Shown here one piece after another: positions 24,501 through 62,505 of a stretch of 64,000 nucleotides of DNA. The translations under genes were made by a program, and so were the position numbers. The stretch comes from Albula goreensis (lineage: Eukaryota; Chordata; Actinopteri; Albuliformes; Albulidae): assembly GCA_022829145.1 (NCBI GenBank), contig CM040761.1, positions 21,768,245 through 21,832,244 on the forward strand, given 5' to 3'. The notes beneath the pieces are model-generated. The model had not been told where the DNA came from. It worked only from the letters and a program-made list of their open reading frames with translations, and did no database searches. Positions within the stretch are counted from its first letter, which is position 1. Each line of letters starts with the position of its first letter.

Positions 24501-26690
24501 GTTTAACAAATGAATGACTTCTGAAATATATTCTCTCTGCTGTTTGCATAGTAATTGAGGCAGGGGAAATGTCAGAATTTAAATCGATGTGCTTCGAGCT
24601 TAGATAACATCTTTGAAAAAGTACATTGGGAATTATTATCAAACACATAAACTCTTTGATCAGCCTGATCAGGCAAATTGGAAAGAGAGAAACAAGAACA
24701 GAAGGCAAACAAAGTTTCTTTTTAACACCTGCAAAGTTTATTAATGTAAATGTAAATTAGTGGCTGTGGAACGCTGTGGATATTGTTATTCCCACGTTGA
24801 ACTGTTCAGCAACTGTTCCTCACGGTGAGCTGTTCCCTGTTATTCCTCTGTCATCACAGGAGGGAGTAGAAGTGAGGGTGGCCAGGATCTTCAACACCTT
24901 CGGTGCTCGAATGCACATGAACGACGGCCGAGTAGTCAGCAACTTCATCCTCCAGGCCCTGCAAGGGGAACCGCTCACGGTAAGCTGGGATGGTCACGGG
25001 CCCCGCAGAGGTCTTCTCTCCCTTCCTGTCTTCATCTTTTCACTGATCTGTAGTGACTCTGGATTAACTGTGTGCAGTTTCTGTCATATTTCTTTCAACT
25101 GTCTTTGCTCTGGAGATCAGGTGAAGGAAGGAAGGAGGAACCCAACTGTAGAGTTTTTGGACACAAATGCAGTCAAGGGGAGGGTCACAGTATACTGTCC
25201 TATAAATAACATCATGGTCTTTAGTTGCTCCACTCAACTGGAGAATCAAAGATTAAACTGCCCTGTAAAGAGAGTTATGGTGTGTAGCTGCTGCACTCTA
25301 ATGAAGAGTCACAGGCTTAATTAGTGCTTCATTCATAGTTATTTATATGTCATTGACAATGACCAGGAGGTTGTGACCATGATCCTGTGTGTGTGAGTAC
25401 ATTTTCAGAAAGATCCATATGTGTTTATCTCTGTTTTAGGTTTATGGGTCAGGGTCCCAGACGCGGGCGTTCCAGTATGTGAGGTAAGCAGTGGGGATCT
25501 TGTGACAGGGCTGGGTGCCACAATTTGCTGCATCGTTTGGCCCCACAGCCAAGCTAATGACAGCTGAATGCCTGTCTGACTGGTTCTGGAGCAGTGGATG
25601 CTGTGTGGGTGTGAGGTGGTTTTCTATGGGGACTCCCTGGGTTCCCTCAGAGGGGTCTCACTGTGTTTACATGGAGGGGGACAGGGATGGGCACAGGGGT
25701 GGGGGTGGGAGAGACTGCAGTTCCTTGTCTCTTTAAGGAGTTCTCACAGGCTTACACAGATAGTCAAACACACAGACAAAGACGTTCGCAGTCATGCACA
25801 TATACTTACACACACAATCTCTCGTGCTCATACTTACTCACACACATACTCTCAAAAATATACTCACACACACTTAAAAACATACTAACACACACAGACT
25901 ACCACACAGGCACACACACACACACACACACAATCACAAATAATGTTATTTATATTTGTACTTCTGTTGAAAGGGGAGAAGAGTTGCAGTATTCTAATAG
26001 ATTAAAAAATTGGTGAGCTGAACAAATACATTCTCAGCTGGGGAAAAGTGCATGATCATGATAAATATCATGAAAGTCTCAACTACAGTTCACCCGATCG
26101 GTAAAGAGCGGTAAAATCGGGTTAGGTAGAGTAAGCGTGACAGTGCCCCCGTTGTGTTGTTAGCAGTATCAGGGAGTAGGAAATGGTGCAGGCCGACCCA
26201 TTGGGAGCCAGACTCTGAGTTTTATCGAGGACCCAGGCGTAGCGAGGGGAGAAGGATCTGGAAGTTTGTCGTGGCAGGGGGTCCGCCCCAAAAGCATGAG
26301 TCCCAGTGGAGGGCGAGGAAATCCAGAACACTCAGGAGGGCGCCGAGCCGCCAAGACACCCTCCCCCCACCCCTCCGCCTCATTGCAACCGCTGTGGGGC
26401 CTGGAGCCCCCCCCCGGTCACTGCAGTCACCACACTGGGAACATCAAAGGCCCACATTTTAGAACCTGCAGAGCAAGCAGCTAATGCCCTTTCATCTCAA
26501 ATTGAGGATCGGTTATCATGCGCGCAGATTTTATCAGCTCCCACGGTAGCGTTGCAGGTTGTGGAGGTGTGCGTGCGTGTGACAGCGTTTGAGGATACGT
26601 TTGAGTGTGTGTGTCTATGCATGTGTGCACGTGTGAGTCTGTGTGTCTTTGAACATGTGTGCTTGCTTGTGGGTGTATGTTAACTTGGAA

Positions 26691-44503: not shown

Positions 44504-44653
44504 TTAGTAGTAATCGTAGTTGACGTTGGCGCCATGTCTGTAGGCGGTGGGGTCGCGGGGTCCGAGGGGGGAGTTCTCGTCGTAATGGTGCTGGCGGCCC
44601 TGGTCAGTCCCTCGGTAGTGGTCCATCCAGTAGGACAGGTGAGCCTCAAGTGT
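44504..44653 (-). CDS. ecrg4: ecrg4 exon 4 (residues 96-144 and stop)
   Basis: Acceptor ccacag, phase 0. It encodes [15 protein letters not shown], then [14 protein letters not shown] and [11 protein letters not shown], followed by TAA at 44504-44506. Aligns with the human C-terminal tail. Confidence 0.95.
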   Translation of the reverse strand, partial: TLEAHLSYWMDHYRGTDQGRQHHYDENSPLGPRDPTAYRHGANVNYDYY

Positions 44654-46851
44654 CTGTGGACATCACAGAAGAAAACAACTGGGTGACCGCAGATTCTCCA
44701 GGAAATGTCAGGACGGTAATGGCAACCTGCAGGGGACTGGGCTGGGGAGGGTGGGGGGTGATGGTGGGGCACAGAGTGTGGCAGACAGCTGAGGCCAGAG
44801 GGCCACAGGTGTCTCTGGGTCAGGCCATTAGCGTGATCACACCCTGGCACTGTACTCGGAGCTGTCAGGCGCGCCTCCCTTATAGTGCTGTCCCTTGGCA
44901 GGATATATTACAATAAAACACACTATCAAGGTCTATCTCCTATCAAGTATGTAGGCATCAAGGTCAAAACAGACATCAAAACACACTTTATGCGCAAATC
45001 TACAAATAAATGCAGATATTGCAATACATTTTGAGTAATGCTGTGGAATATATTTATGTAATGCAATTTCCAAATCCACAAGGTTCGCATAAACCCAGAG
45101 AGCATCCCCATGTCTGTACTTGTCTGGTTTAGTTTAGGGGCAATTTATGCAATTTCCACCACACCCACCCACCCCTGGAAACCAAAATTTCTGAAACTCG
45201 AGACTCATCTGAAAACTGAATATCTTTGTCTAGCCTTTTCTGTTACACTATTTTTGCTGAAAAAGCTACTCTGGAAAATGTTTGTTCCCTCTTTCTGTTT
45301 GTGTTGTGCATGATGTGGTTTCTCCTAACACAGGGTGTTTATAGTTTATGCTCTCACAAGTGCCAAGAACTAAATGCCATATTGGCATTTTTAACAAAAC
45401 TCCTGCAGTACAGCACTGTGCCCAAGGCATGTTGTGCTGCGTAGGATCCGAGCCCTGGGTTTGGGCAGGCGGTAGAGGGTAACAGTACTCCTCCCCAGCT
45501 CACAGTGTTTGGTTGCCTGACCATTCCCAAGTCATAAATTTCTCCTGCTTCCTTGACGTCCCTTAAATGCTATTTGCCTGGGAGGTTTTCCTGCGACTTT
45601 GACAGAAACCTTGAAACAATAAAATTTTGAACTGCAAACACTCATTGTTCGCCATTGTTAAGACATTATATCATGACCCAAAAAAATCAGTGGCCCTCAT
45701 TCATGATCCTGTAGATCTACAGTGTGTGCTGTTTTTTTTCCATAATCCATAATTTTTTTCCACTAATCAAGTGCTGTATAACAACAACAACAAAAAAAAC
45801 ACTATGTCTCTCAGCTGTCCAGGACCATGAGTGAGGGTTGTTATCTAACGTTACAGAGATAATGTGGGTATGGTGTTGCAAGTCAAGTCGGGGAACGTTC
45901 TAAGCATAACATTAGATCACAGTGCAGTGGGAGGCTGACCTAAACCTCCTCTGATGTTCAGGGAACGTTTTTGGTTGGCCGGGTCTCCACTCACCGCCTC
46001 GTCGAATCCCATGTACATGAACTGCATGATCCACTGCTGCACGTCGGCGCGGCTGCGGTCCCAGATCTGTCTCTTACGGCGCTTCAGAGATGTCAGGAAC
46101 TCTTTGGCCTTGGACGGCATGACCGCGACCGCTGGAGGCAGGGCCCGGTCCGCAGGAGGGGCTGGGGCTGGGGGGGGATGACACGGGGCATCTGAACCCA
46201 GAATAAACCCCAACACTCGGCTGTCCATCCGTCCATCTGTCTGTCAGGCCGTGATGCGAACGCCACGGGAGAATTCACCTTCCCTCAGGGTGTGAAATTT
46301 CCAGATCGCACCCTTCCTCTAACACACACAGCCCATTCCCCCTTCGGGCGACATCATCAGCTCGTCAGCACCCCATAATTACCCCATAACAACGACCACC
46401 CATCCTCAGGAACGCCCCCAGCCATCACAGCTGACAGTTACCAGTCACCATCTGGGACCACACACAGCGGGGGTCAGACTCCGAGCGACTTAATTACAGA
46501 CACTGGAAAGGAGAGGAGCACCGGAGGGAGCACACAGATTGAAGTATTTTGAGGATTAGCAGTGAAATTTAGCCAGTATTGAATTTACAAGTAAGATTTC
46601 TGGGCGTATGTGTGTACATATTTTGGCAGAGTTTTGGATTTTTTTTTTTATTCCCCAACAAACACTACATATTCATTTTGTGTTGCGGTTACGTTACCTT
46701 CTCTTTTCTTCAGGATCTTGTGAAGTTTGCTCTCACTGGAAACATCTGTAAAAGGACATGGTAACATTTAGGATCTGGTCCAAGTTCTCTTTCTGTCAAT
46801 CTCTCAGTCTTTCTCAGGATGCCCAGTGAGCTCAACCTGACAAACAGAGAA

Positions 46852-46906
<55 letters not shown>

Positions 46907-48158
46907 ATCTATTAGATATCTCAGCTCTCTGTGTCTCTCTGTTTGTGTCCGCGCCTCTTAAAAAAATAACAGAAACAGTCTAAAAAGCCCGAGTTAGGTG
47001 CAGCCGGGTCCTGCTTTCTCAGCCGGCTGCCAGGAGCGGTTCCATCAGGATTTAAGTGGTCTGATTGGAGCAGGCCCTCCCCGGCTGTGACTGTTTCTAT
47101 CCGCTCCCTTTCCACCGCTCTGCATCGGGCATGCGCATGGCGCTGGTCGTGGGAATGGCTCACAGATGTTAGAAATTGTCTGAACATGCTGACACATGCT
47201 GAAGTGTTCTCTCTACTGTACCTAATTGTCCGGGGAGAGAAACTTTTTTTTTTTCCTTCAGCATTGGGCTGGAAAATTCAGCACATTCTGATGCTGTTTC
47301 TAACCCAAAACTGGAGTTGAAACAATAGCACATTTTCATTTTATTATACCTTCCAAAACGGATTCTGAACAGCAGCCCAGTTTCACATATTCATTTGAAT
47401 ATCTCTCTCTCTCTCTCGCTCTCTCTCTGTCTCTCTCTCTACTGCAGTATTCACCAGAGAAATTAAAGTATGTTTCAGCATGCTCAAAGTTCTGAGAGAA
47501 AAAATGTCTGAGTCCAAACTGAGGACAAAGATTAAAATTTCCTTAATATGAAAGTAAGACAGCATTGTGGCCCCAGGGTCCTCACAGAGAGCGATAGAGC
47601 CCTCATCAGCAGAGCCAGGGGCGGAGGTCATTTCCCTTTCTCCTCGAACACAAATACCATATTTACTCGTCTTTCACCATCTCCCTCCTCTCCTCCTCTG
47701 CACTTCCACTCTCACCTTCTCACAAAGGAGGTGGGGTGAGGTTAGGGGGGTTAAAACAGAAGTGTCTTGAGCTCCTGTCATCCCATGGTGCCCCCCTCTC
47801 ATTACAAAAAAGTACTGACATGCACCCTTGCATTTCGGTTACATACTGACTGACACCCAGATAGCAAGGTGTGCCCTCTCTCTCATTCTTTCTTTCTCTC
47901 TATATCTCCCTATCCTCCTGCAGTGGTTGCATGCATGAGAGAGACTCTGCTCTTTCTCTCCCTAACATCCAGTTCCCCCAACTTTCCACAGACTCTTCTG
48001 CTACTCATGCAGTATGTGCTGTAATCGGACAGGAGGAGAAAAGAGAGGTGCAGGGAGAACAGAGTGAAACTGGGAGCAGAGGGGTTACCTGAGAAAGCCA
48101 GGAAGGCGAGCAGTGTGGTGAAGACCAGCAAATGCAGGCAGAGGTTGTGAGAAGCCAT
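44504..48158 (-). CDS. ecrg4: Augurin (ECRG4), secreted peptide precursor, complete
   Basis: ECRG4 is a small secreted, membrane-tetherable precursor processed into hormone-like peptides. In mammals it acts in choroid plexus, leukocytes and growth control. Coding exons on the minus strand are 48089-48158, 46698-46745, 45995-46161 and 44504-44653 (435 nt, 144 residues; human 148). Order: signal peptide 1-23 (hydrophobic [13 protein letters not shown]), a short [11 protein letters not shown] segment, the [20 protein letters not shown] region with processing site R67-R70|Q71 at the same position as the human cleavage, the core W-D-V-QQW-QF-MGFDEA, and an acidic/Tyr-rich tail ending NVNYDYY (human NYDDY). 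All junctions are GT-AG and phases agree. It is tail to tail with uxs1, its neighbour in human 2q12 too. Whether this is ecrg4a or ecrg4b is not determined. Confidence 0.95.
44654..45994 (-). other. ecrg4: ecrg4 intron 3
   Basis: Intron of 1,341 bp. AT-rich with short homopolymers; nothing else recognised. Confidence 0.8.
45995..46161 (-). CDS. ecrg4: ecrg4 exon 3 (residues 40-95, augurin core)
   Basis: Phase 1 in, phase 0 out, donor gtgagt. Encodes the [10 protein letters not shown] processing site and the [13 protein letters not shown] core. Two acceptors six bases apart (exon start 46161 or 46167) are both in frame and differ by Pro-Ala. I chose the proximal one, but either or both may be used. 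Confidence 0.92.
46162..46697 (-). other. ecrg4: ecrg4 intron 2
   Basis: Intron of 536 bp with no recognised element. Confidence 0.8.
46698..46745 (-). CDS. ecrg4: ecrg4 exon 2 (residues 24-39), 48 nt
   Basis: Acceptor ccttttacag, donor gtaacg, phase 1 both ends. Encodes [16 protein letters not shown], matching the human segment NKLKLMLQKRE. The exon is too short to appear as an open frame but restores both the frame and the homology between exons 1 and 3. Confidence 0.93.
46852..46906 (+). repeat. (TATC)n microsatellite
   Basis: Perfect tetranucleotide run of about 13 units. Confidence 0.97.
47402..47440 (+). repeat. (CT)n microsatellite
   Basis: CT run with two interruptions. Confidence 0.9.
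48089..48158 (-). CDS. ecrg4: ecrg4 exon 1 (signal peptide)
   Basis: ATG at 48156-48158 in context GACCATGG, a good Kozak match (purine at -3, G at +4). It encodes 23 residues with a hydrophobic core ([13 protein letters not shown]) and ends in phase 1 with donor gtaacc. Confidence 0.93.
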
Positions 48159-48420
48159 GGTCGCTCTTCCTCTCTCTCAGCCCAGGACGCGTTCAGTGTG
48201 GCTCTGGAGCTGAAGTGGGATGGAGGCAGGGGGGGGGGGCGGGCGGAGTGGGGGGGGGGGGGGCACTAGAGGAGGATCACCGTGGAAACATTCCTACAGG
48301 AAATGTGCTGGCGCTGGTGGAATGCCGTAAATGCGAAACCCCAGCAACTCCCGGACCCGTTCACTCTCACTCTCTCTTCTCAAAGTGAAGATTCATGTGC
48401 GTCTGCATGCTTTTGCCACA
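48159..48420 (-). promoter_or_regulatory. ecrg4: ecrg4 5' flank with long G-runs
   Basis: Immediately upstream of the ecrg4 start codon. G-runs of 11 and 14 at 48229-48239 and 48250-48263 on the plus strand (template strand for ecrg4) are joined by a CGGGCGGAGT spacer. No TATA box is evident. The position suggests the promoter or 5' UTR, but the TSS is not defined. Confidence 0.45.
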
Positions 48421-49131
48421 TCTGCTAAAGCAACAGTTTGACTGTCACGGGGGGATTCTTCCTTTCCTTTGCTGCAGGGTCACGGCTTTATTTATGCGCT
48501 CTTCTGCCGGCTCCTCTGCAAAGCCCGTTCTTTTGAGTAAACTTCTGCTTATGTCATTACCTGTAGGAAGAGGGAGAGGAAATGTCTTAAGCAGCTCTCA
48601 GACTGCACTCCTTATATTTTCATAAAAAGGAAATATCTGAACGCCTGATAATACTATATTGTGGATCATAAAATCCACAGGAAAAAAAAAAAAAAACAAA
48701 CAAACTCCATGCAATAACTGCGCACTGTACAAATAGAATTGACATCGCATTGCTAGACCTGCATCATAATGTCTACCACCAAAACGTCATTAAACAAAGT
48801 GTTTTTTTTTTCCATATGCAGAAATTGCATGTGTTTTTTTTTATCTGTTTAAATTTGAATATGTGTGAAAATGTCAGGATTTAATAAAATTTTATAATCG
48901 GCACACTCCTTATGACATTGTTATGGAATCTTAACTATGTAATCTATGTCAGAATTGAGTGCAGATCTCAGACAGTGAATAAGGTAAACAGGGACATTGG
49001 TGGCTTTGCTGACTCTGTAGAGCGAGCGAGCGCCTGCGCCTGCCAAAACTGCAAACCTCTCCAGCCGCTACTCTTTCCTACTCATTTGGTGCCAAGCAAT
49101 GGTGGAGTAAACAAACAGGCTTTGGAACAGC
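48421..49131. other. Intergenic, ecrg4 upstream
   Basis: AT-rich unique sequence with short A- and T-runs. No gene or mobile element recognised. Confidence 0.7.
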
Positions 49132-49137
49132 ATGGAA

Positions 49138-49383
49138 TACACACAAACACTCACGCATGCACGCACACACTCACACACTCGCGCGCACGCATGCACACAC
49201 ACACTTGCGCACACGCATGCACACACACACTCACACACTCGCGCACACGCATGCACACACTCACTCGCGCACACGCATGCACACACTCACTCACTCACCC
49301 GCTGGCACGCACACACACACACTCACACACACACTCACTCACGCACACTCACGCACACACACACACTCACACACACACACACA

Positions 49384-49424
<41 letters not shown>

Positions 49425-49568
49425 GTGCACGCATGCACACACTCACGCACACACACACACTCACACACTCGCGCACACGCATGCAAACACTCACTCACTC
49501 ACCTGCACGCGCGCACACACACACACACTCACACACACACACTTGCGCGTGCATGCACACACACAGGT
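49138..49568 (+). repeat. Long alternating purine-pyrimidine (CA/CG/TG) array
   Basis: About 430 bp of CACACA, CACTCA, CGCGCACACGCATGCACAC and related units with a higher-order repeat of about 30 bp. Three forward frames stay open through it, giving His/Thr-rich spurious ORFs. Confidence 0.95.
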
Positions 49569-49658
49569 GCTTTATTGGCAAGACATGCACTGTGTTGGCG
49601 AAGCAAATGATAAAAATGACAACAGCTACCATGTGTATGCCTTATTGGATCTCATGAG

Positions 49659-49735
49659 GTAAAAGGAAAACGGTAACATTTACGATCTGTTCCAAGTCTC
49701 TCCTTCTATCCGTCTATCTATTTAATCTGTCAGGC
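49659..49735. repeat. Duplicate of ecrg4 intron-1 block
   Basis: GTAAAAGGA, GGTAACATTTA, GATCTG-TCCAAG and a following TATC-like stretch match 46748-46807 (the acceptor side of ecrg4 exon 2). The AG of the acceptor and the exon itself are not present here. Confidence 0.6.
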
Positions 49736-50449
49736 TGTTGTCATGTGAAAGCTCATATCTTATCAGTAAACTCTCTCACTGTGCTTTTGTAAGGGGTGGG
49801 TTTACTTCAGCAGCTGCCGGCCTCCGTCGCACCACCTCTAACATCCCTGATCAACCTGAGACAGCCCTCAGACAGTCAGGTCCATTCAGACAGAAATGAG
49901 AGTCCTCCTTCAAGGCCGTGTTTTTCTGTATTTCCATCAGAAAGCACAGTGTTTGGACGCCCTGCCCTCCTGTGCCTTTACTTCTGAAAGGAAATCCACC
50001 CCGGTCATTCTTAGTGGGTGACTCTGAGTTTGAGGTGATTTGATGGGAAGGTCTTTCTGTGGTCCGAGCATCCAGTTCTCTCCCTGTCAAACAGGGTGGT
50101 CAGAAGATGTTCTTCATGGTGACGAGGTAACGGAGCCTCTTCCCACTCAGAGATGACACTATGTGGTCATGCCTCCAGACAGTTACAGTACAAAGGCCAC
50201 TGGCACTGGGCTTCGTTACCTTTTGACAGCTCAATAACATTCACATAAATCCTTGAATGGCAGGGCTGATTGGTAACTCATGTTATCGACATGCTGGCTT
50301 CTGATTTTTGGATGGCCAGGTGGTCAGGTGTCAGTACTGACCATGAATGGAATTACTGACCAGCAGCTCTTAAGGACATCAGCACATAACTGGCCATACT
50401 GCCTGCTAGAGAGGGTTGGTTTCAGTTGTTTATCTCACCTTTAAATCAA
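49736..50449. other. Intergenic
   Basis: Unique sequence without a recognised gene. The open frames on both strands show no homology. Confidence 0.65.
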
Positions 50450-50775
50450 ATCAAATTCATAGAGCACATTTCATAAAGGAATCAATTCAATGTGTTTTAT
50501 CAAACAGAAACATAGCTAAAACATACAGCAAAGCAATTAAAAAAATAAATAAAGGATAAGAAAGTACCATTAGGATCAAATTAAATACCAATGAAATTCC
50601 TTTGAACAAAAGCTGCACAGAAAAGATATTTTTCAGGTTTTTTTATAGAAACTCTTTCATGTTTCAGTGTTTTCAAGGCCAGTTGGCAGGTTTTTCCAAA
50701 GGCAGTGTGCATAGAAACGTAATGCTGCTTTCCCTGCAGGTTTGGCTCTGAAGGATCACCAACTCCTCTGTCCTT
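50450..50775. repeat. Dispersed fish repeat (unassigned)
   Basis: Begins around ATTCATAGAGCACATTTCAT and runs through A-rich sequence to CCAGTTGGCAGGTTTTTCC and AATGCTGCTTTCCCTGCAGG. I recall this series (from a gcacatttcata start to a gctgctttcc end) as a common teleost interspersed repeat. The class is unresolved. Confidence 0.45.
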
Positions 50776-51545
50776 GCAGTCCGGCTGCGGCAACTGGGGC
50801 AGGCAGCGTGCTCATCTGATGCAATGACTGCGCAGCTCAGCCAGTAAAATGCGCAGCAAAAAAAGCACGGAAGTAGCGGAGGGCGGCGCATGCTTCAGAG
50901 GCTGTGTCTCTGTCTGCATTTTCCTAAATGATGGAGGAGGATGAGGTTGCCACGGTTGCAATGGGAAACTCCAAACCAAGAATTAATCATTTGTTTATAA
51001 AAAGGTGATGAGTTTGTCGTGAATATTTCATCATGAACCGAGATTACTCGCCACTACACTTCTGCTGCACCATGACATGTTGGCACTACAAAGATAAGAG
51101 ATGAAAACAACTCAATGTTCTTCAGAGAGAGTTCCTTCTTAGAGTCCCAGCCATGACACATTGTTAGAAACCAAGAGCACAGACTGTCCCCAGCTCTCTG
51201 CCTCAGCCCCCTGCAGAAGGGGCTTTCAGTTATCCCCTGCGCCCTGCCACACTTCAGTCACACTGCGCCGCACGAGCTCAACATAGAGGATTCAGCTCCG
51301 CAGATGTGGAGTACAAATCAAACGCATCCTCACCCGCGTCAGTCACAGCAGCGGGGTCGCACTGATCATCAATTCATCTGAGTGCAGCACATCACATCTG
51401 TGCTGCCATATTGGAAAATATAAGGACGTATATTCACTCTCTGGGGGTGAAAGACATCAGGAATGTCATTTTAGAATGATGCACAGAGAGAGAAAGAGAA
51501 AGAGAGAGAAACTTATTCTTGTAGAGAAAGAGAGGGAGGTACAGT

Positions 51546-51548
<3 letters not shown>
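50776..51548. other. Intergenic
   Basis: Unique sequence. The CpG-containing part at 51230-51400 has ATCATCAATTCATC-type motifs, but I cannot support a call. Confidence 0.6.
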
Positions 51549-51578
<30 letters not shown>

Positions 51579-51593
51579 TAGATAGATAGATAG

Positions 51594-51628
<35 letters not shown>

Positions 51629-51629
51629 G
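51549..51629 (+). repeat. (GACA)n(GATA)n compound microsatellite
   Basis: A GACA run passes into a GATA run over about 80 bp. Confidence 0.97.
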
Positions 51630-51860
51630 CTTACTTATGATGTTCACTGGATATCCCTATATCAGTTACTAAGTCTGTAATATTTTTGAGCAGTGCAGCT
51701 CTGGTGAACATGATGTTCAGGCTACACTGCTAGACATAGGGGCCTGCTAACGCTAGTTTACCGCCCTGCTCCAGACATAGGGGCCTCTGTTCGACACAGG
51801 GTTGCGCCAGGGACGCAGGAAGCTGGCACGGGCATCTGACCACAGAAATACCCCAGAGCT

Positions 51861-51951
51861 ACTGCTGGTGTGGAGGTCCGGTCAGGTACTGAAATTGACC
51901 TGAGAGACTGCTGGTGTGGAGGTCCGGGGTACTGAAATTGACCTGAGAGAG
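51861..51951 (+). repeat. 46-bp tandem duplication
   Basis: Two units starting ACTGCTGGTGTGGAGGTCCG, at 51861 and 51907, differing by a short indel. Confidence 0.9.
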
Positions 51952-54229
51952 ACGGGGGGGGCGGGGGGGGGAGGAATGGAAGCTGGGTCTAGGGCTGGGG
52001 AGAAACTGAGTGAAAGAGCAGAAGTGTGTTTTTGTCAACAACCTCAGTGGTGTTTCCATATGGTCCTCTGCAACAGAGCAGCATTCACATTTTGCAACAG
52101 CAGTGTTGCAGATTTACATTGCCTCCCACATATATTCAGATTTTTAAGTCAAACTGGGTGGTTGGGGGGGGATTTAACACAAGTGCTGTTCAGGGTCAAA
52201 CATATCCTTTCAAATCCCCAAAATAAAAAGTGTGCTTTTGTTTCATATTAATCATTTTATCTTAAGTCCTGTGTAAATAAACTTTTGCAGTTCACTGTCC
52301 CATTGTACAAGCAGGATACACTGGATCATCATCGAAACCAGGTGTAGGAAACTCCACTCCGGAGGCATGGTTTATGTGCATTCATTTATTCATATATATT
52401 CCTTTGCCACAGATCAGCCTGTTCGCTGCATTCACCCAATCACAATTTACTTGCAGATTATGTCACATACGAACATGAGAACAATCTTTGGGTGTCATGG
52501 CATCATCAAGAATTCAGCTGAGATGTCAGATCACATAAATAATTGAGCAGAACTAGAACTTGAAGTCCAGAATTAGGTACAGCTCTTCTTGCCCTCCCCT
52601 GGTAATTGGTATATTGGTATATTTTCTGAGCATAATTATTTCGAGGCTCACATACTTTATCTAGCGGGGTTGTCAGACATGCTCTGTTCCATTTGTGTCT
52701 GATCCTAACGGAGAACGGGCTAAACCCAACCCCAGAGGCTCCCCTCTTCCTCCCACTCTCATGTGTCATGTGAACGGGGGGTTTTACTTCGACAGTGTTC
52801 ATTTGCTTCATACTAAAAGAGATGCTTTTTTTATCTGCCAGAGAAATGCTTAAGAATGTGGTGACAGGAGAGAGCCGTCTCCCTCAAGCCTCTCTCGTAT
52901 TTGGAGCAATATACCCAGAACACCCTCTTCGTATTTCCAAGTGAAAATGTGTAACATCTTTGAATAATGTGTAATAATCCCCTTTTATTTTTTAATACTA
53001 AAGTCTCTAAACAATCATACATAACATTACTTTTAAATCGGTTCAGTTATAAATGAATTTGACAGGTTGATTTTTAAATTACGGTTTACAGACTTGCCTT
53101 CTGAAAAATTTTACCTAGCACTTAACCCCAAATACAAGATGGGTAATTACCATTTTCAGATACTAGACACTAAAGGATATCTTTACAAATCAAGGTAATG
53201 AAACAAAGTAAATGAATAAAAAAATTCGTTCTACAGTCTCACTTACCAACATTCACAACAGTAAATAAACATTTTTTTTTTCTAAAATCAACAGGCATTC
53301 ACAAATGTGTCACTTATTGATAAATGAAGACCAATTTCTGTGTGTCACTCAGAGTCAGCATACCTTTTCTGTCTGCTGTAGGCCCTGTCAACATAAAATA
53401 TAATCAGCTGATGAAAACAGATGGCATAGAACTGACCTGCTGAAAGCTACTGTGCTCTAAAGAAAATAAACTTGCAGCTCACCTACGCTGGCGGGAATGT
53501 GAAAGTCGACTCTCTCAGGTGAAACCTAAACATTGTTCCAGAGACCGTGTCACCTTCGACCTCCGGCAAGACAGGACACGCTCTGAGGAGAAATTATCTT
53601 GTGTTGACATGAAACAGAATCACTGTTTGTCATCACGGAGGAACTACCAGCTCAAAGGTTTATGCTTTTTTGGGTTTCATGTTTTGGGGCTAGATTATGT
53701 AATCTTTTGCTGGACTCCTCAGTAACTGAAATTTAACCTGTTTTCAGTGGGGATTTGTTTGTGAATAAACGCCATGGGCCCACTGTATAACCTATTTTTA
53801 GATAAATGTATGGCTTTGAAAGGTATAGCGTCACTGTCAGCCTTGCATTCTTTCTCTCTTAGTTCCAAATGCCCAGGCCCTGCACCCAGACATGGAAGTG
53901 ACAATGTGTTGATTTTTTTTTTTTTTTTTTCACTGAGATAATTCATCCATCTAATTACTGCTCGTGGTTATCACGTCTTTCTCAGCACAGCCAAGTTGTA
54001 ATCAAATTAAAAAGCATCATATGCCCCTGAAACTTCCCAGAACCAATCTGGCACCACATAAAAGAAAGACGACTCGGAGTCATACAGCAGGATGATGGCT
54101 GTATTCAGGGGGGCGTATTTTCTGCTCGACGCAGGAGGAGCAAAAACAACTTGGGGAAAGACAGATGCTCAGCAATATGCAATAAACATATTTCCAAAAG
54201 GTTACGCTGTTTCCTCCTTTTAACTCAAT
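51952..54229. other. Intergenic
   Basis: Mostly AT-rich unique sequence, with a G-rich run near 51955-51972 and T-runs. No gene or mobile element recognised. Confidence 0.65.
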
Positions 54230-54439
54230 TTCCTATCACGACTTTGAAGCTCCCCGTATTCCCCTTGGGACCGAGGTAAATCCTCTCGCTGTAGATACCT
54301 GCATAATGGACTGGCTGCTGGCTTTTTGCCTGAGCCCTGACATTCCTTCAGGTGGTTCTGCCATCTCGCGGGACGGACTGGATTCTTCCTCCGTCGTGAC
54401 GAGAGAGCTCATCAGAGCCGCCGGTCGGGCCGCCCGGTT

Positions 54440-54640
54440 TATGTATCAATATGCAGTATCACTGGTCGTCTTTATTCATGAGTCGCGATCCACGCATGAT
54501 TTATTCATGGTCCGTTGGATTGAATCACCACGCAGGATCGCCGTTTGTCTTATTCGTGTAACGGAATTAAATCAATACGAGGGGTATCACAATTTGTATT
54601 ATTCATGCACCAGAATTCAATAAAAACACGGACTCCATCT
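54440..54640. promoter_or_regulatory. Candidate regulatory element with repeated TTATTCATG motif
   Basis: TTTATTCATG occurs at 54471-54480 and 54500-54509, CTTATTCGTG at 54549-54558 and ATTATTCATG at 54598-54607, with ATGCAG/GCATGA octamer-like halves nearby. The block is unique and lies between ecrg4 and otospiralin. POU or Hox binding is inferred from the motif only. Confidence 0.35.
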
Positions 54641-55609
54641 CAAATAAGAAATACAAACCAGGCGTCAACTGATGTCGTTTTCTCGACAGGGGGTGATTTT
54701 TTTTAACTTGAAGTGAGACAATGGACTCGCTCCTGGTGTTTGTCTTTTTGATTAGTGGGGAAACTTTTTTGACCCGTAGCAGGCTGTAGTCTCTTGAGGG
54801 CGATGCCAAGTTCTCATTTGGCAAAGTACATATCCGCATATTCCATGTTAATATGACTTTTTCAATAATATGTGTATTTGAAAAGCTGCCCAGTTCTAAT
54901 CTTAAGTGTAACAAGCCCTGCCTGTATGGCCTTCTCCAAAATGCTTCACTTTTGGCAAAATATAGCAAGTTGCTGAATAAAAGGAGTAGTATTCTGTACA
55001 GCTGAGAAATTTTCCACTGAGAGTAAAAGCTGGCTATGTTACACAGGACGGAACATGTGCAGAAAACAAGCAGTCACTGATCTCAGTTTGTTATGGAGCA
55101 GGTTTGTGAATTGCCTTGAAATTATGAAATAATTTTACATAAAGAGAACTGATACGAGCTGAGATCAACCAGGTTATAGATAGAGAGGACTCTGCAGTGA
55201 ACCTTGGGACTGTTGACAGCATTTCTTGTTCCCTTTTTTTTTTACAGTGAAAATATATTGTTACAAGGTAGAGATGAGGAATGAAAAAGTGGTGTAAAAC
55301 TTGTCAAAACAAAGTATTTTACAACTTTAGCCAAGAGTATGGTTCACTCCCCAACAAAGATGAAAGAGGACGCATACTTAGCAAGGGGATTCACACATTT
55401 ACCATTTGTGTTTGGATAGATTTATTGTACAGCAAGTTTGGCCTATGGTCATATGCAGAGCTTCAAGAGAAATTTTGGAAGGGATTTATATACATTTACA
55501 CCACATTTTATTTTGTTTTTCTTTTTTCTTCCATTCAGCATGCTATGTAAGTATCAATTGACTTAATCAATTTAAGTCACAGATTGGTTGAATAATTCCT
55601 AATAATTGC
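54641..55609. other. Intergenic, downstream of otospiralin
   Basis: AT-rich sequence; no feature recognised. Confidence 0.65.
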
Positions 55610-55615
55610 TTTATT
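55610..55615 (-). terminator. otos: otospiralin poly(A) signal
   Basis: Minus-strand AATAAA 207 nt after the otospiralin stop. Confidence 0.65.
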
Positions 55616-55821
55616 TTGGAGAGCCGAACTTGGCTGCTGTTTGACTGGAAAAGACGAAATCGTGCTGATGTTCTGGCCCAATAGGACATAAGCGTGGTGT
55701 GATGGGTTCAGGGTTTGACTCTGGGCGCTGAGGTCTGGGCAGAGCGATGGCCAAAGGCTGGTTACTGAGCAAAGGGGGAAGAGAGCGGAAAGGAGGAGAG
55801 CGTGATTGGTTGCTTTCTTCT

Positions 55822-56003
55822 TCACTCGTCAGGATCTGGGGTGTCGTAGCCCAGCCTGTTGGCGGAGGGGAAGTGGGCCCAGAAGGTTCTGGCCAGGTCC
55901 TCGATCCGGTCGTATCCGGCTTGGCTCCGCAGCTGCTCCACCCAGCCGAAGAAGTCAGAGGCCGACATGCTCCAGTTGGGCATGCTGCGCTTTTCCCTGG
56001 TCT
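55822..56003 (-). CDS. otos: otospiralin exon 3 (residues 36-95, core domain)
   Basis: Phase 1 in, TGA at 55822-55824. Carries REKR|SMPNW and the complete otospiralin domain. The acceptor is a NAGNAG type (tcagcag), so an extra Ala could be included by starting at 56006. Both forms keep the frame. Confidence 0.93.
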
Positions 56004-56977
56004 CTGCTGAGAAACCAGAGGCAGTCTGGTCAACAGGGCCAATCACAGACTGCTCAGATAACGAGGGAACCAATCAGAGCCATCAAAGATGTAGAGGGAG
56101 CCAATGAGAATGAACTATCAGTTGGGTCACTGACATAATCACAATAAAACAGCCAAGACAGAGAGAGAAGATATATGCAGAGGTGGAAAACTCCCATCTT
56201 CAGAAAGTAGAAGTAATACCATGTGCTTTTACTTTCTGAAGCCTGGATATATGTGAGTTAATGGAAGGAAATGAAAGGAAAGAGCATAAATCAGAACTGT
56301 ATCCAACAAACTAATCTGCTCTTACTGCCACCACATTGGACGCCTTGCTGGGACACCAACCAATTTCAAAAGAGTAAGAGAGCTCAGCCATCAGGGCAAA
56401 AATTTTTTGGATTTTTAACATATTCATCATATTAATAATTCTTTTGTGTATGTTTTCAGTAGTAAAAATAATGATAAGTAACTGGTTTAAACATGACATC
56501 GGTCTGCAGCCGATGTCAGGAACAATTTTCAAGTCAGTGGAACTGGAACATCACGCCTGTGTGCTGTAGGAAGCTGTCTAACAAACATTCGGTTATATTT
56601 GCTGAGGCTGTCTTTCTCCACTGAAGTTCCCCTTTAAGAGTCAGTGGGGAGGCGGGAGGTGAGTGGGCAGTAAGTCTTTGAAAAGGAGTCCAGTGAAGAC
56701 CCCTTGGAGTGAGGTTACATAAGCTCCGACTGCGCCCCACTGGTCCTCGGGGAGAGGCCGAACAGCGCTCTGCACTTAACCGCTTAGCTCCCGGTGCAGT
56801 GTGTGTGCTGGTGACCCATGAATGCAGCCGGAGCGCAGAGCAGATCCCAAACCCTGCTGCTGTGCGCAGCTGTTCCTGCAGCTGCAGGGGCCAATGGGCC
56901 AGTGGGCTGAGACAGGCCCCGGCCCGCTGCTCCTCCGTGCCTACCTGCCCGCCAGGTACAGCTCCACACTGTGTGCC

Positions 56978-57020
<43 letters not shown>

Positions 57021-58438
57021 ATCCTGTGCTCCTGCACTATCACACCCTCTTTCCTTCACTCTCTTCCTCCATCTGCCTCTCCCACTGTCATGCACCCCTC
57101 CCCTCTCTCATTCACTTTTTCTTTTTTCCCCACTGTCTCTTATCCACCTCTCTCAGTCTCCCTCATTCTCTCTCTTCCTCCCTTGCATGCACTCCCACTC
57201 TCCCACTCTTCTGTCTTATTCTGTATCATCTCTCTACCCAGTTTTCCCTGTTTTTCTCTGTATCCCTCCCATTCTCTTCTCCTCCCTCTTCACACCTCCA
57301 TTATTCACCCTCTCCATACGCATCTCTCTCACATCCATGCTTACTCTACCTACCCTTTTCTCTTTCTCTCTCTCTCCCTCTCTCTCTGTCTCTCTCTCAG
57401 GGCTGATGTACCTATACCCTGAGACTCATCAGGAAGAGGTCAGTGTCGACACACAAACAAACAAGTTCAATAAACACAAAACGCTCACAGCTCAGGCCTT
57501 ACCTTGGGCCTCCTCGCTCACCGCTTTCCCAGCATCCTCTGCCACTGCCAGGGAGGGAGGGAGGAAGGAGGAGGAAGAGGCAAGAGAGAGAGGAGGGAAA
57601 AAAAGTAAATGAATTAAATGAATGAATTAAATGCATTCTCCACGCCTATATAATAAATTCCATTTATTTTATTTTCATTCCTAAGGGTTATTCTTTTATT
57701 TTAAATTCTCAGGCGACGCTGGGATGTTCCCCGCCATGCTGGAGATGGGTTGCTTTAATGCAGAGAGCCCTTATCAGCGTGTGTGTAAAGCGATGTAGAT
57801 TTTGAGGCAGATCTCAGTGCAGAGGAAGCAGCTGCAGTCTCTAGGTGTATCTGGGTTCTCCAGTTCCTCAAAGCACTGTTAAACTGCGAGACATGCATAC
57901 AAATCCACATTAATTAAGCTACGGTAAGTCCTATGATCCCTTTAATCATTTAAATATATATTTTTGTGCCGCAGGCCGGGGGCATGGGGTTCCCTCTCAC
58001 ACACTGAGTTACTCCCACAGCGCTCAGCCGTTCCACATGCTCTCACTCTACACCTGTAGTCTCTTAGGCGCGGTAATCTGAATCATGTGACATATAGCAG
58101 CAAGGGGCTCAAAACCTCTTCATCTACGAGTTCCATTTTCTACAGAGCTCACTCCACATTCTGCTCTTAAGGGCCTGTTTAGGTTTTCTTCCCAACACCA
58201 CCCCCCCAAGATCCATAGTAGAACTAACAGTCATCATGTGTACGTATACACACATTCCACAGGGGTCAAATCGCTCCCTTTGTGATTTTTTTTTTTAACT
58301 TGGTAGCACACAGGCTAAGGTCTACAGGTTAAGCTTAAGTGTTTTCGCCAGCTGTGCTCTCCTGTTTTTTGCAGGGTGTGTATCTGTATGTGTGTGTGTG
58401 TGTGTCTGTATGCATATGGTGTACGTGCATGCTGGATT

Positions 58439-58469
<31 letters not shown>

Positions 58470-59728
58470 CAAGGGCAGCATAGCGTTGAAGCTCTCGTGC
58501 TGCGTTCACTGGGCAGCTAACGGTCGGTACCACAGGGAGTAGCGAAGGTGCAGAAGGAGCGGTCAGCTGGAAGACAGGCGAAGGGGAGATGGACGCAGCA
58601 CTGCGGTCAGTGCGCTTGGGTTCCTTCTGACATTTGCCATTTAATGCCTGCGCGTCAAACCCCCTGGGGACACGGGGAGGAGAGGGACAGACACGCAGCT
58701 AACCTTCAGCCCTGGCTGAGATTCACGTCCACGCACACAGCTAACCTTCAGCCCCGGCTGAGATTCACGTCCACGCACACAGCTAACCTTCAGCCCTCTC
58801 TCAGCTCCAGGGTGCCTCCCTGTTACCCTGAGTCACTGTTACCAGACCCATGCAAGGTACTGCATTAATTACAGTTGGAAGATGCAGTATAAATAACTAT
58901 AGGAATGTTCTGGAGAACTTTAAGGTTCAATTACCGTGGTTTTTCTCCTCAGTGTCAGTAGTTGTGTTGCAGCCATTAACATTATTTAGGGTTATGGAAA
59001 ATAATGAATCACATGTTAGTAAAAAAATGTGAGCACAGATGTTAGTAAAATATGAAACCATTGAGCAGTAGAGTGTTTTGGGTATCATTGTCATAATGAC
59101 AGCAATAAAGACATCTTGAATTTACAGACCTCTCTGGAAGTGAATTGGAAGCATTAAGCTCTGAAAAGGATATCTTTCCTTCCATCATTCACCTTGTATC
59201 CAGTACTAGCACTGATTTTTTTGGATCCCTGTATTCCATTATTTGGAATCTCTTCTGTCCAGTAATTAATCTATACACCACACTGCCTTTCCATGAGCCT
59301 CAGCATCCAACAGGACTCAGAGTTCCAGCTTTCCTTAAAAAAAACACGTTTTGGCTGAAGAGCGCACACACCATATTTTGAAGCCTTAATTTGAAATCAC
59401 AAAAATCTGCAGACGATGAGGCGATCCAAGCCTGGAGCTGGAAACCCCTTAATTAAAGTGCTTTGTCCTTTGGGAATGCCTGAAGCCCAGCACTGCAGAG
59501 CTTTGTTTGAATCGAGTCCGCCCCCCTCCTGCCTGATGGGGGTGTCACAGGTGTCCCTGCCAGCGATGACACCGTAGGGAGCCAGCCTCCCTGCAGGGCT
59601 TTGATGTGCCACAGGTGGGCAGGAGGTGACATGCCCCGTCCCCCCCGGCGACAGGACCACGTACCTGTTAGACAGAGCAGGCCCAGCAGGGCGGCGCAGC
59701 CGAGCAGCATGACGAGCAGTCGAGGCAT
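55822..59728 (-). CDS. otos: Otospiralin, small secreted protein, complete
   Basis: Otospiralin is a small secreted protein of inner-ear fibrocytes needed for hearing in mammals. Coding exons on the minus strand are 59665-59728, 57503-57544 and 55822-56003 (288 nt, 95 residues; human 89). Order: signal peptide 1-21 (LLVMLLGCAALLGLLCL), a short acidic segment VAEDAGKAVSEEAQ, R38-E39-K40-R41 (furin consensus R-x-K-R), then the otospiralin domain [36 protein letters not shown] ending DPDE. The [13 protein letters not shown] block matches human IEDMARTFFAHFP. Junctions are GT-AG with matching phases. It sits 7.7 kb upstream of ecrg4 on the same strand. Human OTOS lies far away on 2q37. Orthology is clear by motif; the symbol follows the human gene. 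Confidence 0.92.
56004..57502 (-). other. otos: otospiralin intron 2
   Basis: Intron of 1,499 bp. Its centre, 56985-57400, is an extended pyrimidine-rich tract on the plus strand. A 237-residue frame at 56709-57422 arises from that tract and is not a gene. Confidence 0.8.
56985..57400 (+). repeat. Polypyrimidine (CT-rich) tract
   Basis: About 415 bp composed overwhelmingly of C and T, bounded by pure CT runs at 56985-57018 and 57362-57400. Such mirror-like homopyrimidine tracts can form triplex DNA. In the otospiralin transcript it would read as a purine tract. Confidence 0.9.
57503..57544 (-). CDS. otos: otospiralin exon 2 (residues 22-35), 42 nt
   Basis: Acceptor ccctggcag, donor gtaagg, phase 1 both ends. 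Encodes VAEDAGKAVSEEAQ. It is too short to be an open frame on its own but joins exons 1 and 3 in frame. Its sequence is acidic, like the human propeptide-like segment. Confidence 0.85.
58382..58464 (+). repeat. (GT)n microsatellites
   Basis: Two GT tracts separated by a 33-bp spacer. Confidence 0.92.
58699..58800 (+). repeat. 42-bp tandem repeat, about 2.5 units
   Basis: Units starting CTAACCTTCAGCCC at 58699, 58741 and 58783, almost identical. The last is partial. Confidence 0.92.
59665..59728 (-). CDS. otos: otospiralin first coding exon (signal peptide)
   Basis: ATG at 59726-59728 in context AACTATGCC. Encodes MPRLLVMLLGCAALLGLLCLT plus one base (phase 1), donor gtacgt. A strong acceptor (cacgtcttcctgcag) ends 13 nt upstream of the ATG at 59741/59742, so the exon probably starts at 59741 and a non-coding exon lies further upstream. 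Confidence 0.9.
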
Positions 59729-59823: not shown

Positions 59824-61680
59824 GCATGGAATCAAAACGCAGACACACATATCAGCTGTGCCTTAGTTTTAAATGCTTTGTTTGCACGGCATCTTTTAAA
59901 GGTATTCTACCAAAGCTTAGCTCATTCTATAAAAATGCAACGTTAACAAAAAAGTATTACCATGTAATTTAGAAGACATTCTTAATTACAATGACTTATT
60001 GAAGCACAAAAAAAAAAAAAAGAAACAAAGATTCCCTTACAAGATGTCAAAAAATCAGGTAGCAACAGAAGATAGGGCTTATGTGACAGACAAAGAAAGA
60101 AGCAGAATGAAGGAGAAACACAAACTGAAATAAACAAAACAACTCAAACAAATTGATCACAAGAAAGCCATAAAGAAAGACTATGGATAGACAGTCTACG
60201 TAGACACTGTTCTGGGAGAGAGGATTTCTGGATGTTTCCGCATACCTGCAGCAGGGCTTCTGGGTCCTTTCTGCTCCGAGTGTCCAGCAACTTTGCCTTG
60301 GCTCACGGAAGAGAGGAGAAGAGCCCACTGGGAACTGTTTGCTTTTCACAGAGCGGCTCCGTATGTCGTACCCTACTGCTCTTTTTCCTACCGTGTCTTC
60401 ACTTCTCGCACCTGTGCATCTGGAGCCATGCGTCTCAAAGGGGGCCATTGTTTGGGCCCAGGGACCCGTCAATGTAACGAGACAGAGGGTGGGAATTTCA
60501 GACGGCAACCCCCTTCCCCCCAAACACTTCTTGAGACGCAGGCTCTGCTGGTACCGTGACGGAGACCAGAACCAGGTCGCAGTTCTGATCCATGGGAATG
60601 AGATCCACCAGGGCAGGGGCAGATCCATTAGTAACCTGAGTACTGCACTGCTAACAGCGCTCTGTTGTGATTGATGGTACGGCTCTCATTCACTTCATTA
60701 ACCATGACATGCAGACACCAGTGTCCAAAATGTTTTTTTTTTTTTTTTTTTCAAGCAATTCTGACTGGATGCAAAAGACTGTTCGGTCATTAAATGTGAT
60801 ATTCCCCACTGCAAACAAGTTCTGAAACCCAAGGGTCCAAGTTTGCCATTTTGGCTCAGTACAGTGAAATTTTAGGAATGCTTTATACTAAGATTGCCAT
60901 AATTATGAATAACCATAAATAAAATGTTTTGATTCAAATTTTTTTCCCCACTGTATCTGACCTAAGATTTCACTGAGTTCAAACATGTTTAGCAAACATG
61001 CTATACATCTACAAATTGTTATGTGATTACCAGTGTGTGTTCTAAAGTTAAATGGTTGATTAAATAACTTATTCTTTAGCACAGGCACTGTTAATAGTGT
61101 TATTGAAATGTTTATTTCAAACTATTTATACTTTAGAGAAGTTATGGTCTGTGGTGTTATGGCACTGGTTGTCTTCAGAATTCATTTCACATTTCAGACC
61201 AAACCAAAACATTTTCTGAGCTTTTCAAAAATTGATTCACTTGTACATGTCAACAGATGCGCTTTCATATCGGCCCTATCACTCCCAATCTCTTTTATTC
61301 AAAGAGAATAGGAACCAGAGGAGTTCTGTTGAAAGCTGTCTGTGAAAAGTCTCCCAACATGCTGACAGCAAGCCACATTTTTAATCAGTCCGTAAGCCAC
61401 CCAGGAGTCATCACAGACATGGTATCACAGACCAAAAGAGAAATCACATGTCTGCAGTCATTCACAATTCCCTCAGTGACACGGAACACAGGGTGTGATG
61501 GGATATGTAGTGTTCCTGGTCCATCTTTTCTTGGCCTGGTGTTCCAGATCACCTGCACTCTATTTACCTTGCTGTTGATCATCAGGGTCCATAACAAAGT
61601 ATCTAAGCTTGGGGACAGATTAACCGAGAATCATTTTTCTCCTGTCCATATTCTAACCACATCCATAATGAGCTAAAAGG
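59824..61680. other. Otospiralin 5' region and intergenic
   Basis: Minus-strand donor CTGCAG|gtatgc at 60246/60245 could end the non-coding first exon of otospiralin. Otherwise unique AT-rich sequence with T- and A-runs (60733-60752). Frames of 193 (minus) and 139 (plus) residues lack homology. Confidence 0.45.
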
Positions 61681-61689
61681 CAAATCCAT

Positions 61690-61892
61690 TACATTACAGC
61701 CATTTAGCTGATGCTTTTATCCAAAGTGACTTACAGTTAATTAGGCTAACCAAGGGCCAATCCCCCCTGGGAGTAATGAGGGGTTAGGGCCCAACAGCAC
61801 TGGTGTTTTGCTGTGGCCGGACTGGAGCTTAAACCACCAACCTCAGGGGTCCCAGTCATGTACCTTAGGCACAAGACTACAGACTGCCCCTA
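61690..61892 (-). mobile_element. tRNA-headed SINE, - orientation
   Basis: Reverse copy of the element at 38184-38393: tail ATTACATTACAG and TTTATCCAAAGTGACTTA on the left, GGGTTAGGGCCC and the tRNA-like head ending GACTGCCCC on the right. A 9-bp target duplication CAAATCCAT flanks it (61681-61689 and 61893-61901), so its ends are well defined and insertion was by retroposition. Confidence 0.87.
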
Positions 61893-61970
61893 CAAATCCA
61901 TGCTGGCATCAGCACTGCTATGTGTAGATGTGGCTCTCCCAGGTGGGGCAGCACTCTGCCCTCAGAGCCA

Positions 61971-62220
61971 TACCTACACCTCTCAGGTGAGCCAACATCA
62001 CCTGGGTCTCACATGTACTATACCTACACCTCTCAGGTGAGCCTACATCACCTGGGTCTCACATGTACTATACCTACACCTCTCAGGTGAGCCTACATCA
62101 CCTGGGTCTCACATGTACTATACCTACACCTCTCAGGTGAGCCTACATCACCTGGGTCTCACATGTACTATACCTACACCTCTCAGGTGAGCCTACATCA
62201 CCTGGGTCTCACATGTACTA
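61971..62220. repeat. 50-bp tandem array, exactly 5 units
   Basis: Five units starting at 61971, 62021, 62071, 62121 and 62171, nearly identical except for one visible substitution in unit 1. Each unit contains CAGGTGA, 7 bp, TCACCTG: a perfect 7-bp inverted repeat that is also two divergent CAGGTG E-boxes. Confidence 0.97.
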
Positions 62221-62377
62221 TGATGTCTGATGGAGGTTTTGCTCAGCTAGGGTGCTCACCTGGGGTGTTTTTTTCAGCCAGCTGTGCGTTTACCACTGTT
62301 TCTCTTCGGATAGCCGAACTGTCTCTGCAAGACTCCATGCTGATTGATTAACTGTATGCAATGGCACGGTTTTGCAG

Positions 62378-62505
62378 AAACCCCCTTATACGACATCCTC
62401 TTCAGGTCTGTCCGAAAGAGCAGCCACATCCATCTGCTGGAAGGAGACAAAGAAAATGAGGAAGAGGTGTGGAGCGCGGAACAGAGCTATCAGAAAAATG
62501 TCCAG
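62378..62505 (+). CDS. Candidate exon of an unrecognised gene
   Basis: I do not recognise this protein. Acceptor ggttttgcag and donor gtaaga bound 128 nt that are open in one frame. Two bases complete a codon from upstream, followed by 42 codons ending in phase 0, from TPLYDILFRSVRKSSHIHLL through EGDKENEEEVWSAEQSY to NVQ. The mixed basic then acidic composition, G+C above the flanks and good splice sites look coding. No partner exon was found in the window, so the gene would extend beyond 64000 or have its other exons unrecognised here. It could be a chance frame. Confidence 0.35.

What the first reader, a model, noticed from the sequence alone, without database searches (positions are those of the whole stretch)
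44504..59728. ecrg4 and otospiralin look like tandem paralogues of one secreted-peptide family
Seen: the two genes are adjacent on the minus strand. Both have a signal-peptide exon ending in phase 1 (70 and 64 nt), then a tiny phase 1-1 exon (48 and 42 nt), then a core exon with an R-x-K-R site. The cores align with one single-residue gap: Trp73/Trp46, Asp79/Asp52, Trp83/Trp56, Gln86/Gln59, Gly91-Phe-Asp / Gly65-Tyr-Asp and Trp104/Trp77 (ecrg4/otospiralin). The first and last Trp are 31 residues apart in both. Known: augurin and otospiralin are treated as separate families as far as I recall. In human both lie on chromosome 2q, far apart. Inference: an ancient tandem duplication still intact in this fish.
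Basis: partly seen in the sequence, partly recalled or inferred. Interest (0 to 1): 0.82.

Follow-up and report, generated by a model that had tools for sequence, protein, structure and literature searches.

The report
Ecrg4 beside otospiralin-like: probable ancient twins
Two neighbouring bonefish genes for small secreted peptides, augurin and an otospiralin-like protein, share part of their gene layout and a faint sequence and predicted-shape resemblance, which makes an ancient tandem duplication likely but not proven.

Summary
The genes, exons, phases and R-x-K-R sites are as described. Corrections: ecrg4 residue numbers are 2 too low; the Trp spacings (10, 21) are identical, so G-[FY]-D needs two compensating gaps; ecrg4 has an extra phase-0 intron inside the core.

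The window gene is not the orthologue of mammalian OTOS but the otospiralin-like paralogue (unrooted 100/100 split).

Homology is unproven. hhalign is at shuffle level. An augurin HMM ranks the otospiralin-like core exon first of 3,677 non-augurin fragments, though only at E 0.14, and first with four disjoint row subsets; in reverse the augurin exon ranks 93rd to 669th of 3,679. AlphaFold2 helix starts agree within one residue. Tandem paralogy: about 0.6. Four paired-name paper searches found none.

The parts
48089..48158 (-). ecrg4 exon 1 (ATG, signal peptide), ends in phase 1
   Evidence: protein 100% identical to P0101 Albula goreensis
46698..46745 (-). ecrg4 exon 2, 48 nt, phase 1-1
45995..46167 (-). 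ecrg4 exon 3: RRKR site (46070-46081), W75 and W85, G-F-D turn; ends in phase 0 after Ala97
44504..44653 (-). ecrg4 exon 4: most of the second predicted helix with W106 (44627-44629) and the conserved augurin C-terminus; stop at 44504
   Evidence: Pfam PF15187 E 4.4e-57
59665..59728 (-). otospiralin-like exon 1 (ATG, signal peptide), ends in phase 1
57503..57544 (-). otospiralin-like exon 2, 42 nt, phase 1-1
   Evidence: models of relatives that lack a stretch at this place (P0008, P0033, P0029)
55822..56003 (-). otospiralin-like exon 3: REKR site (55987-55998), W46-W77 core (55879-55974), stop
   Evidence: Pfam PF15182 E 1.5e-17
24851..25003 (+). stretch within a uxs1 (UDP-glucuronate decarboxylase 1) exon; uxs1 is the convergent neighbour of ecrg4
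   Evidence: E 1.3e-20 to 4m55_A
40698..40805 (+). stretch within a later uxs1 exon
   Evidence: E 1.1e-12 to 4m55_A

Best explanation
The window holds two adjacent genes for small secreted propeptides: ecrg4 (augurin) and otospiralin-like, a paralogue of mammal-type OTOS. SHOWN: gene models, Pfam membership, grouping with the otospiralin-like paralogue, and chromosome linkage in a number of ray-finned fishes including Amia. INFERRED: both arose by tandem duplication of one gene, before the Amia-teleost split at the latest. That gene had a signal-peptide exon, a tiny phase 1-1 exon and a core with a furin-type R-x-K-R site followed by a W-x9-W-x20-W helical hairpin. INFERRED mechanism: each precursor enters the secretory pathway, a furin-like protease cuts at R-x-K-R, and the released C-terminal peptide (argilin in augurin; 54 residues in otospiralin-like) presents the two-helix core to a partner on the cell surface or in the matrix. 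Augurin has a further C-terminal exon; mammal-type OTOS lacks the cleavage site.
For: Exons and phases. Linkage: PYW-type with augurin-A 8 of 10 species, NW-type with augurin-B 2 of 2 (Coilia's augurin assigned by the tree), NW-type with the augurin of Amia, Conger and A. glossodonta 3 of 3 (tallied in 73); consecutive gene tags in A. glossodonta and Coilia. Augurin HMM puts the otospiralin-like core exon first of 3,677 other six-frame fragments, and first again with four disjoint sets of 29 augurin rows without Albula. Profile alignment reached by 8 of 2000 column shuffles for all otospiralins and 23 of 2000 for the fish paralogue; with Trp columns masked the same register is first of 65 offsets for all otospiralins and for mammal-type OTOS. 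Family-permuted decoys by family mean 1 of 300 and 9 of 300. Helices relative to Trp1: +4..+16 and +20..+31 against +5..+16 and +21..+38. [RK]x[KR]R within 12 residues before Trp1 in 121 of 121 augurin, 60 of 65 NW and 31 of 35 PYW rows.
Against: hhalign probability 2-11%; its score is reached by 33, 188 and 198 of 200 column shuffles with signal peptides in place, where the first pair's best alignment is the signal peptide itself, and by 42, 109 and 100 of 200 without. Reverse HMM search ranks the augurin core exon 93rd to 669th of 3,679 (that exon lacks W106 and most of helix 2); whole mature augurin of the window is reached by 41 of 950 E. coli windows, human augurin by 276 of 950. With Trp masked, the fish paralogue alone ranks this register 5th of 65. 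Mammal-type OTOS and PYW rows score near noise with the augurin HMM. ecrg4 has an unshared intron and exon. Signal-peptide exons ending in phase 1 are common (recalled). pTM is low (0.44, 0.29). The cleavage motif is absent in 72 of 72 mammal-type rows.
Confidence: 0.6

Rival explanations
1. The two genes are unrelated neighbours. Both are short secreted precursors, so a phase-1 signal-peptide exon, a basic cleavage site and a Trp-bearing helix arise independently, and linkage persists because the block was never broken.
For: hhalign at shuffle level; weak reverse search; pairwise Smith-Waterman reached by 201 of 5000 shuffles; no cross-match to the other Pfam family.
Against: First of 3,677 fragments in the forward search, also with four disjoint row subsets; same register first of 65 with Trp masked for two of three row sets; agreeing predicted helix starts.
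Confidence: 0.35
2. The resemblance reflects convergence on a shared partner or processing route: both released peptides bind the same kind of receptor or membrane surface through a Trp hairpin, without common ancestry.
For: The score is carried mostly by Trp positions (per-column scores); W2 and W3 are not Trp in mammal-type OTOS.
Against: Does not explain the shared tiny phase 1-1 exon or the linkage; mammal-type OTOS keeps the register without W2 and W3.
Confidence: 0.05

Closest known systems
Augurin / ECRG4 (Pfam PF15187)
   Same: ecrg4 in the window is a plain member: 191.7 bits, 100% identical to an Albula goreensis protein. Precursor layout as reviewed in PMC10088197 (passages seen): leader, putative furin-like site at human residues 68-71, argilin downstream.
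   Different: Nothing for ecrg4 itself. The neighbour gave no PF15187 match at E up to 10.
Otospiralin (Pfam PF15182), otospiralin-like paralogue (zebrafish si:ch73-23l24.1)
   Same: The neighbour is a member: 63.7 bits, among the NW-type otospiralin-like rows (97/91). PMC13188829 (passages seen) mentions a second gnathostome otospiralin paralogue; PMC11612004 (passages seen) lists zebrafish otos and otospiralin like as a duplicate pair with the figure 28%.
   Different: Separated from mammal-type OTOS by a 100/100 branch; keeps W2, W3 and mostly the cleavage motif, absent from 72 of 72 mammal-type rows.

Membership tests
Augurin (PF15187): window ecrg4 | Pfam profile above its curated cut-off | tested here: met
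   191.7 bits against 27
Otospiralin (PF15182): window neighbour | Pfam profile above its curated cut-off | tested here: met
   63.7 bits against 27
Orthologue of mammalian OTOS: window neighbour | Groups with mammalian OTOS rather than with the second paralogue | tested here: not met
   Lies with 36 other otospiralin-like rows; Solea otospiralin lies with mammals; unrooted split 100/100
One family joining augurin and otospiralin | Profile similarity above shuffled controls | tested here: inconclusive
   hhalign no; own profile alignment 8, 23 and 132 of 2000 shuffles; forward HMM rank 1 of 3,677, reverse 93 to 669 of 3,679
One family joining augurin and otospiralin | Same gene structure | tested here: inconclusive
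   First two introns phase 1 with a tiny second exon in both, but ecrg4 has an extra phase-0 intron and exon
One family joining augurin and otospiralin | Same fold of the core | tested here: inconclusive
   AlphaFold2 helix starts agree within one residue, ends of helix 2 differ by 7; low pTM; models could not be superposed here
One family joining augurin and otospiralin | Adjacency in outgroups (gar, shark, tetrapods) | not testable with these tools

The most novel reading that the evidence does not exclude
Augurin and the otospiralins are one vertebrate family of furin-processed Trp-hairpin peptides born by tandem duplication. The uxs1 - ecrg4 - otospiralin-like block was copied in the teleost genome duplication, and the deafness-linked mammalian OTOS is a dispersed branch without the cleavage site, so the two peptides may share a class of partner.
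Probability: 0.5. Interest if true: 0.6.

Novelty: new member of a known kind. Interest (0 to 1): 0.42.

Why it matters
If true, it links two secreted peptides studied in separate fields (augurin: tumour suppression, choroid plexus, Wnt; otospiralin: inner ear and, in catshark, chondrocytes) and lets partners and assays of one be tried on the other. It also corrects a comparison: the fish gene next to ecrg4 is the otospiralin-like paralogue, so work on it should not be read as work on the OTOS orthologue.

Tried and rejected
hhalign as proof: rejected, because its P of 0.002 to 0.02 is at the level of column-shuffled profiles of the same composition.

'One single-residue gap': rejected; offset 29 gives a positive sum over otospiralin-like 46-77, offset 28 a negative one.

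nck2 upstream of otospiralin-like (expected from recalled human order): 60001-64000 in six frames gave no Pfam hit at E up to 0.1; it may lie beyond the window.

Shared expression: zebrafish si:ch73-23l24.1 stands in a gene table beside notochord genes (PMC9170247, one passage), while ecrg4b is described as epidermal and not notochordal (PMC5773182, passages), so no shared expression was shown.

Exon-2 skipping in A. glossodonta augurin (P0104): suspected from its length, rejected on reading; it lacks 16 residues inside exon 3. Paper searches were too broad to be useful.

Full report
WHAT IS THERE. Both genes were rebuilt from the DNA. ecrg4 runs from 48158 to 44504 and otospiralin-like from 59728 to 55822, both on the minus strand, with GT-AG introns. 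The proteins are members of Pfam Augurin (191.7 bits) and OTOS (63.7 bits); neither was matched by the other family at E up to 10. The augurin protein is identical to P0101 of Albula goreensis, so the window is inferred to be from a bonefish of that species or very near it. On the other side of ecrg4, uxs1 exons lie on the plus strand, tail to tail. Human ECRG4 is at 2q12.2 (PMC10088197, passage); that UXS1 is its human neighbour, and that OTOS is at 2q37, is recalled.

The ecrg4 Trp residues are 75, 85 and 106, not 73, 83 and 104. The spacing 10 and 21 is the same in both genes, so the Trp align without gaps, and G-F-D against G-Y-D needs two compensating gaps. ecrg4 has a third intron (phase 0) after residue 97, so its core is split over two exons, and otospiralin-like has no counterpart of its long C-terminus. 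In 172 typed otospiralin rows only W1 and Asp of the matched residues are invariant: W2 and W3 are Y and F in 72 of 72 mammal-type rows, and Q59 and G-Y-D vary.

WHICH OTOSPIRALIN. A tree of 45 rows, drawn with a midpoint root, splits eight mammal-type rows (including Solea P0294 and the unnamed P0295) from 37 otospiralin-like rows (including Latimeria P0017) at 100/100; the window gene is among the latter. Bony fishes thus appear to hold both paralogues, as PMC13188829 (passages) says for gnathostomes. The otospiralin-like rows fall into NW and PYW types (97/91 and 97/84).

LINKAGE. Contig lengths serve as chromosome labels. By eye I found 31 species with such lengths in both lists and tallied them. 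PYW-type with augurin-A: same contig in 8 of 10 (Larimichthys and Seriola lalandi differ). NW-type with augurin-A or an unlabelled augurin: 0 of 16, three of them on small scaffolds; for the two Oncorhynchus species, which have two augurin rows each, both rows differ. NW-type with augurin-B: 2 of 2; the Coilia augurin bears no such label and was assigned by its place beside Clupea augurin-B (99/96). NW-type with the listed augurin of Albula glossodonta, Conger and Amia: 3 of 3. A second Menidia augurin row of another assembly (P0186) was not counted. Gene tags are consecutive in A. glossodonta (JZ751_028995/028996) and Coilia (ACEWY4_016284/016285). The augurin tree holds the seven PYW-linked augurin-A rows given to it in one branch (99/97) and Denticeps, Clupea and Coilia in another (97/90), but labels A and B are not each one clade (two changes each) and the elopomorphs are not placed. 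The simplest reading: a linked pair existed before teleosts, and each copy of the teleost genome duplication kept one pair. Limits: only the 120 best of 278 augurins were listed, so few augurin-B copies were seen, and the same chromosome is not the same as adjacent.

HOMOLOGY TESTS. Against: hhalign probabilities of 2 to 11%. With signal peptides in place, shuffling augurin columns reached the real score in 33, 188 and 198 of 200 for three profile pairs, and shuffling otospiralin columns in 32, 150 and 182 of 200; in the first pair the best alignment was the signal peptide, not the core. Without signal peptides it was 42, 109 and 100 of 200. Ungapped profile segments: 124 of 1000 shuffles for the fish paralogue, 19 of 1000 for all. 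Pairwise Smith-Waterman: 201 of 5000. For: gapped profile alignment over mature regions was reached by 23 of 2000 shuffles (fish paralogue), 8 of 2000 (all) and 132 of 2000 (mammal-type only), and by 10, 3 and 25 of 1000 four-column block shuffles. With Trp columns masked, offset 29 ranked 5th, 1st and 1st of 65 offsets, and 179th, 46th and 1st of 3,520 segment pairs. Family-permuted decoys, by family mean: 9 of 300 (otospiralin HMM on augurins) and 1 of 300 (augurin HMM on otospiralins); by family maximum: 32 and 2 of 300. Overlapping E. coli K-12 protein windows: the augurin HMM scores the window protein at 9.2 bits, reached by 0 of 1,161 windows; Latimeria 8.4 bits, 0; Amia 5.0 bits, 4; PYW-type Lampris -0.6 bits, 170; Pongo OTOS -0.4 bits, 132. 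The otospiralin HMM scores window augurin at 0.8 bits, reached by 41 of 950, and human augurin (recalled letters) at -1.3 bits, 276 of 950. In six frames of the window plus the E. coli stretch, the augurin HMM ranks the otospiralin-like core exon first of 3,677 non-augurin fragments, at E 0.14, which is not significant by itself. It is first again for the core alone, for exon 3 alone and for four disjoint sets of 29 rows, but third for the argilin part. In reverse, eight otospiralin HMMs rank the augurin core exon between 93rd and 669th of 3,679. These tests share data and are not independent, and the row sets are related to one another.

STRUCTURE. AlphaFold2 on Anguilla otospiralin-like (P0001; W47/57/78) gives helices 51-63 and 67-78, with block pLDDT of 81-89 over residues 51-90; on P0101 it gives 80-91 and 96-113, with 82-89 over residues 81-110. 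Relative to Trp1 the starts are +4/+5 and +20/+21; the first helix ends at +16 in both, the second at +31 against +38. Overall pTM is 0.44 and 0.29, no null was computed for this agreement, and the models could not be superposed here.

THE TINY EXON. Gene models of Conger, Onychostoma and Triplophysa tibetana lack a stretch at the place of otospiralin-like exon 2. OTOS isoforms of Rousettus, Manis, Dasypus and Neofelis lack the same nine residues after the signal peptide, judged against Kogia OTOS. Mammal-type OTOS thus seems to have a 27-nt symmetric exon at the same place; the phase is inferred from the junction Asp and was not read from DNA.

HOW IT LIKELY WORKS. In augurin a putative furin-like site at human 68-71 would release argilin, though mutating it had no effect on Wnt-reporter repression (PMC10088197, passages). 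The motif [RK]x[KR]R lies within 12 residues before Trp1 in 121 of 121 augurin rows, 60 of 65 NW and 31 of 35 PYW rows, and in 0 of 72 mammal-type rows. I infer that otospiralin-like is processed in the same way and releases a peptide starting SMPNW. The partner is unknown. Zebrafish si:ch73-23l24.1, whose name several NW-type rows bear, stands in a gene table beside notochord genes (PMC9170247, one passage).

NOVELTY. Searches for otospiralin with augurin, with ecrg4 and with c2orf40, and for otos with ecrg4, each found 0 papers in the held library. The zebrafish otospiralin paper cited by others (Baanannou 2020) is not among the 38 papers listed, and I did not see it.

Noticed in passing
window 56537-57055 (-) and 45995-46167 (-): Public A. 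glossodonta gene models appear wrong: P0002 carries an N-terminus that matches a frame of intron 2 here, in place of a signal peptide, and P0104 lacks 16 residues (VQQW...DEA) of the core.
   Followed up: partly
window 24851-25003 and 40698-40805 (+): uxs1 exons, convergent with ecrg4; the other uxs1 exons were not mapped.
   Followed up: partly
window 49150-49600 and 56990-57400: Long GT-rich and GA-rich simple-sequence tracts (read on the minus strand) between the genes and in otospiralin-like intron 2.
   Followed up: no
window 58690-58840 (-): A sequence of about 40 bases (gctgaaggttagctg...) that seems repeated in tandem inside otospiralin-like intron 1, seen by eye.
   Followed up: no
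P0066, P0099: The PYW-type proteins of Merluccius and Muraenolepis lack the R-x-K-R motif before Trp1; both are gadiforms (recalled), so this may be a single loss.
   Followed up: no
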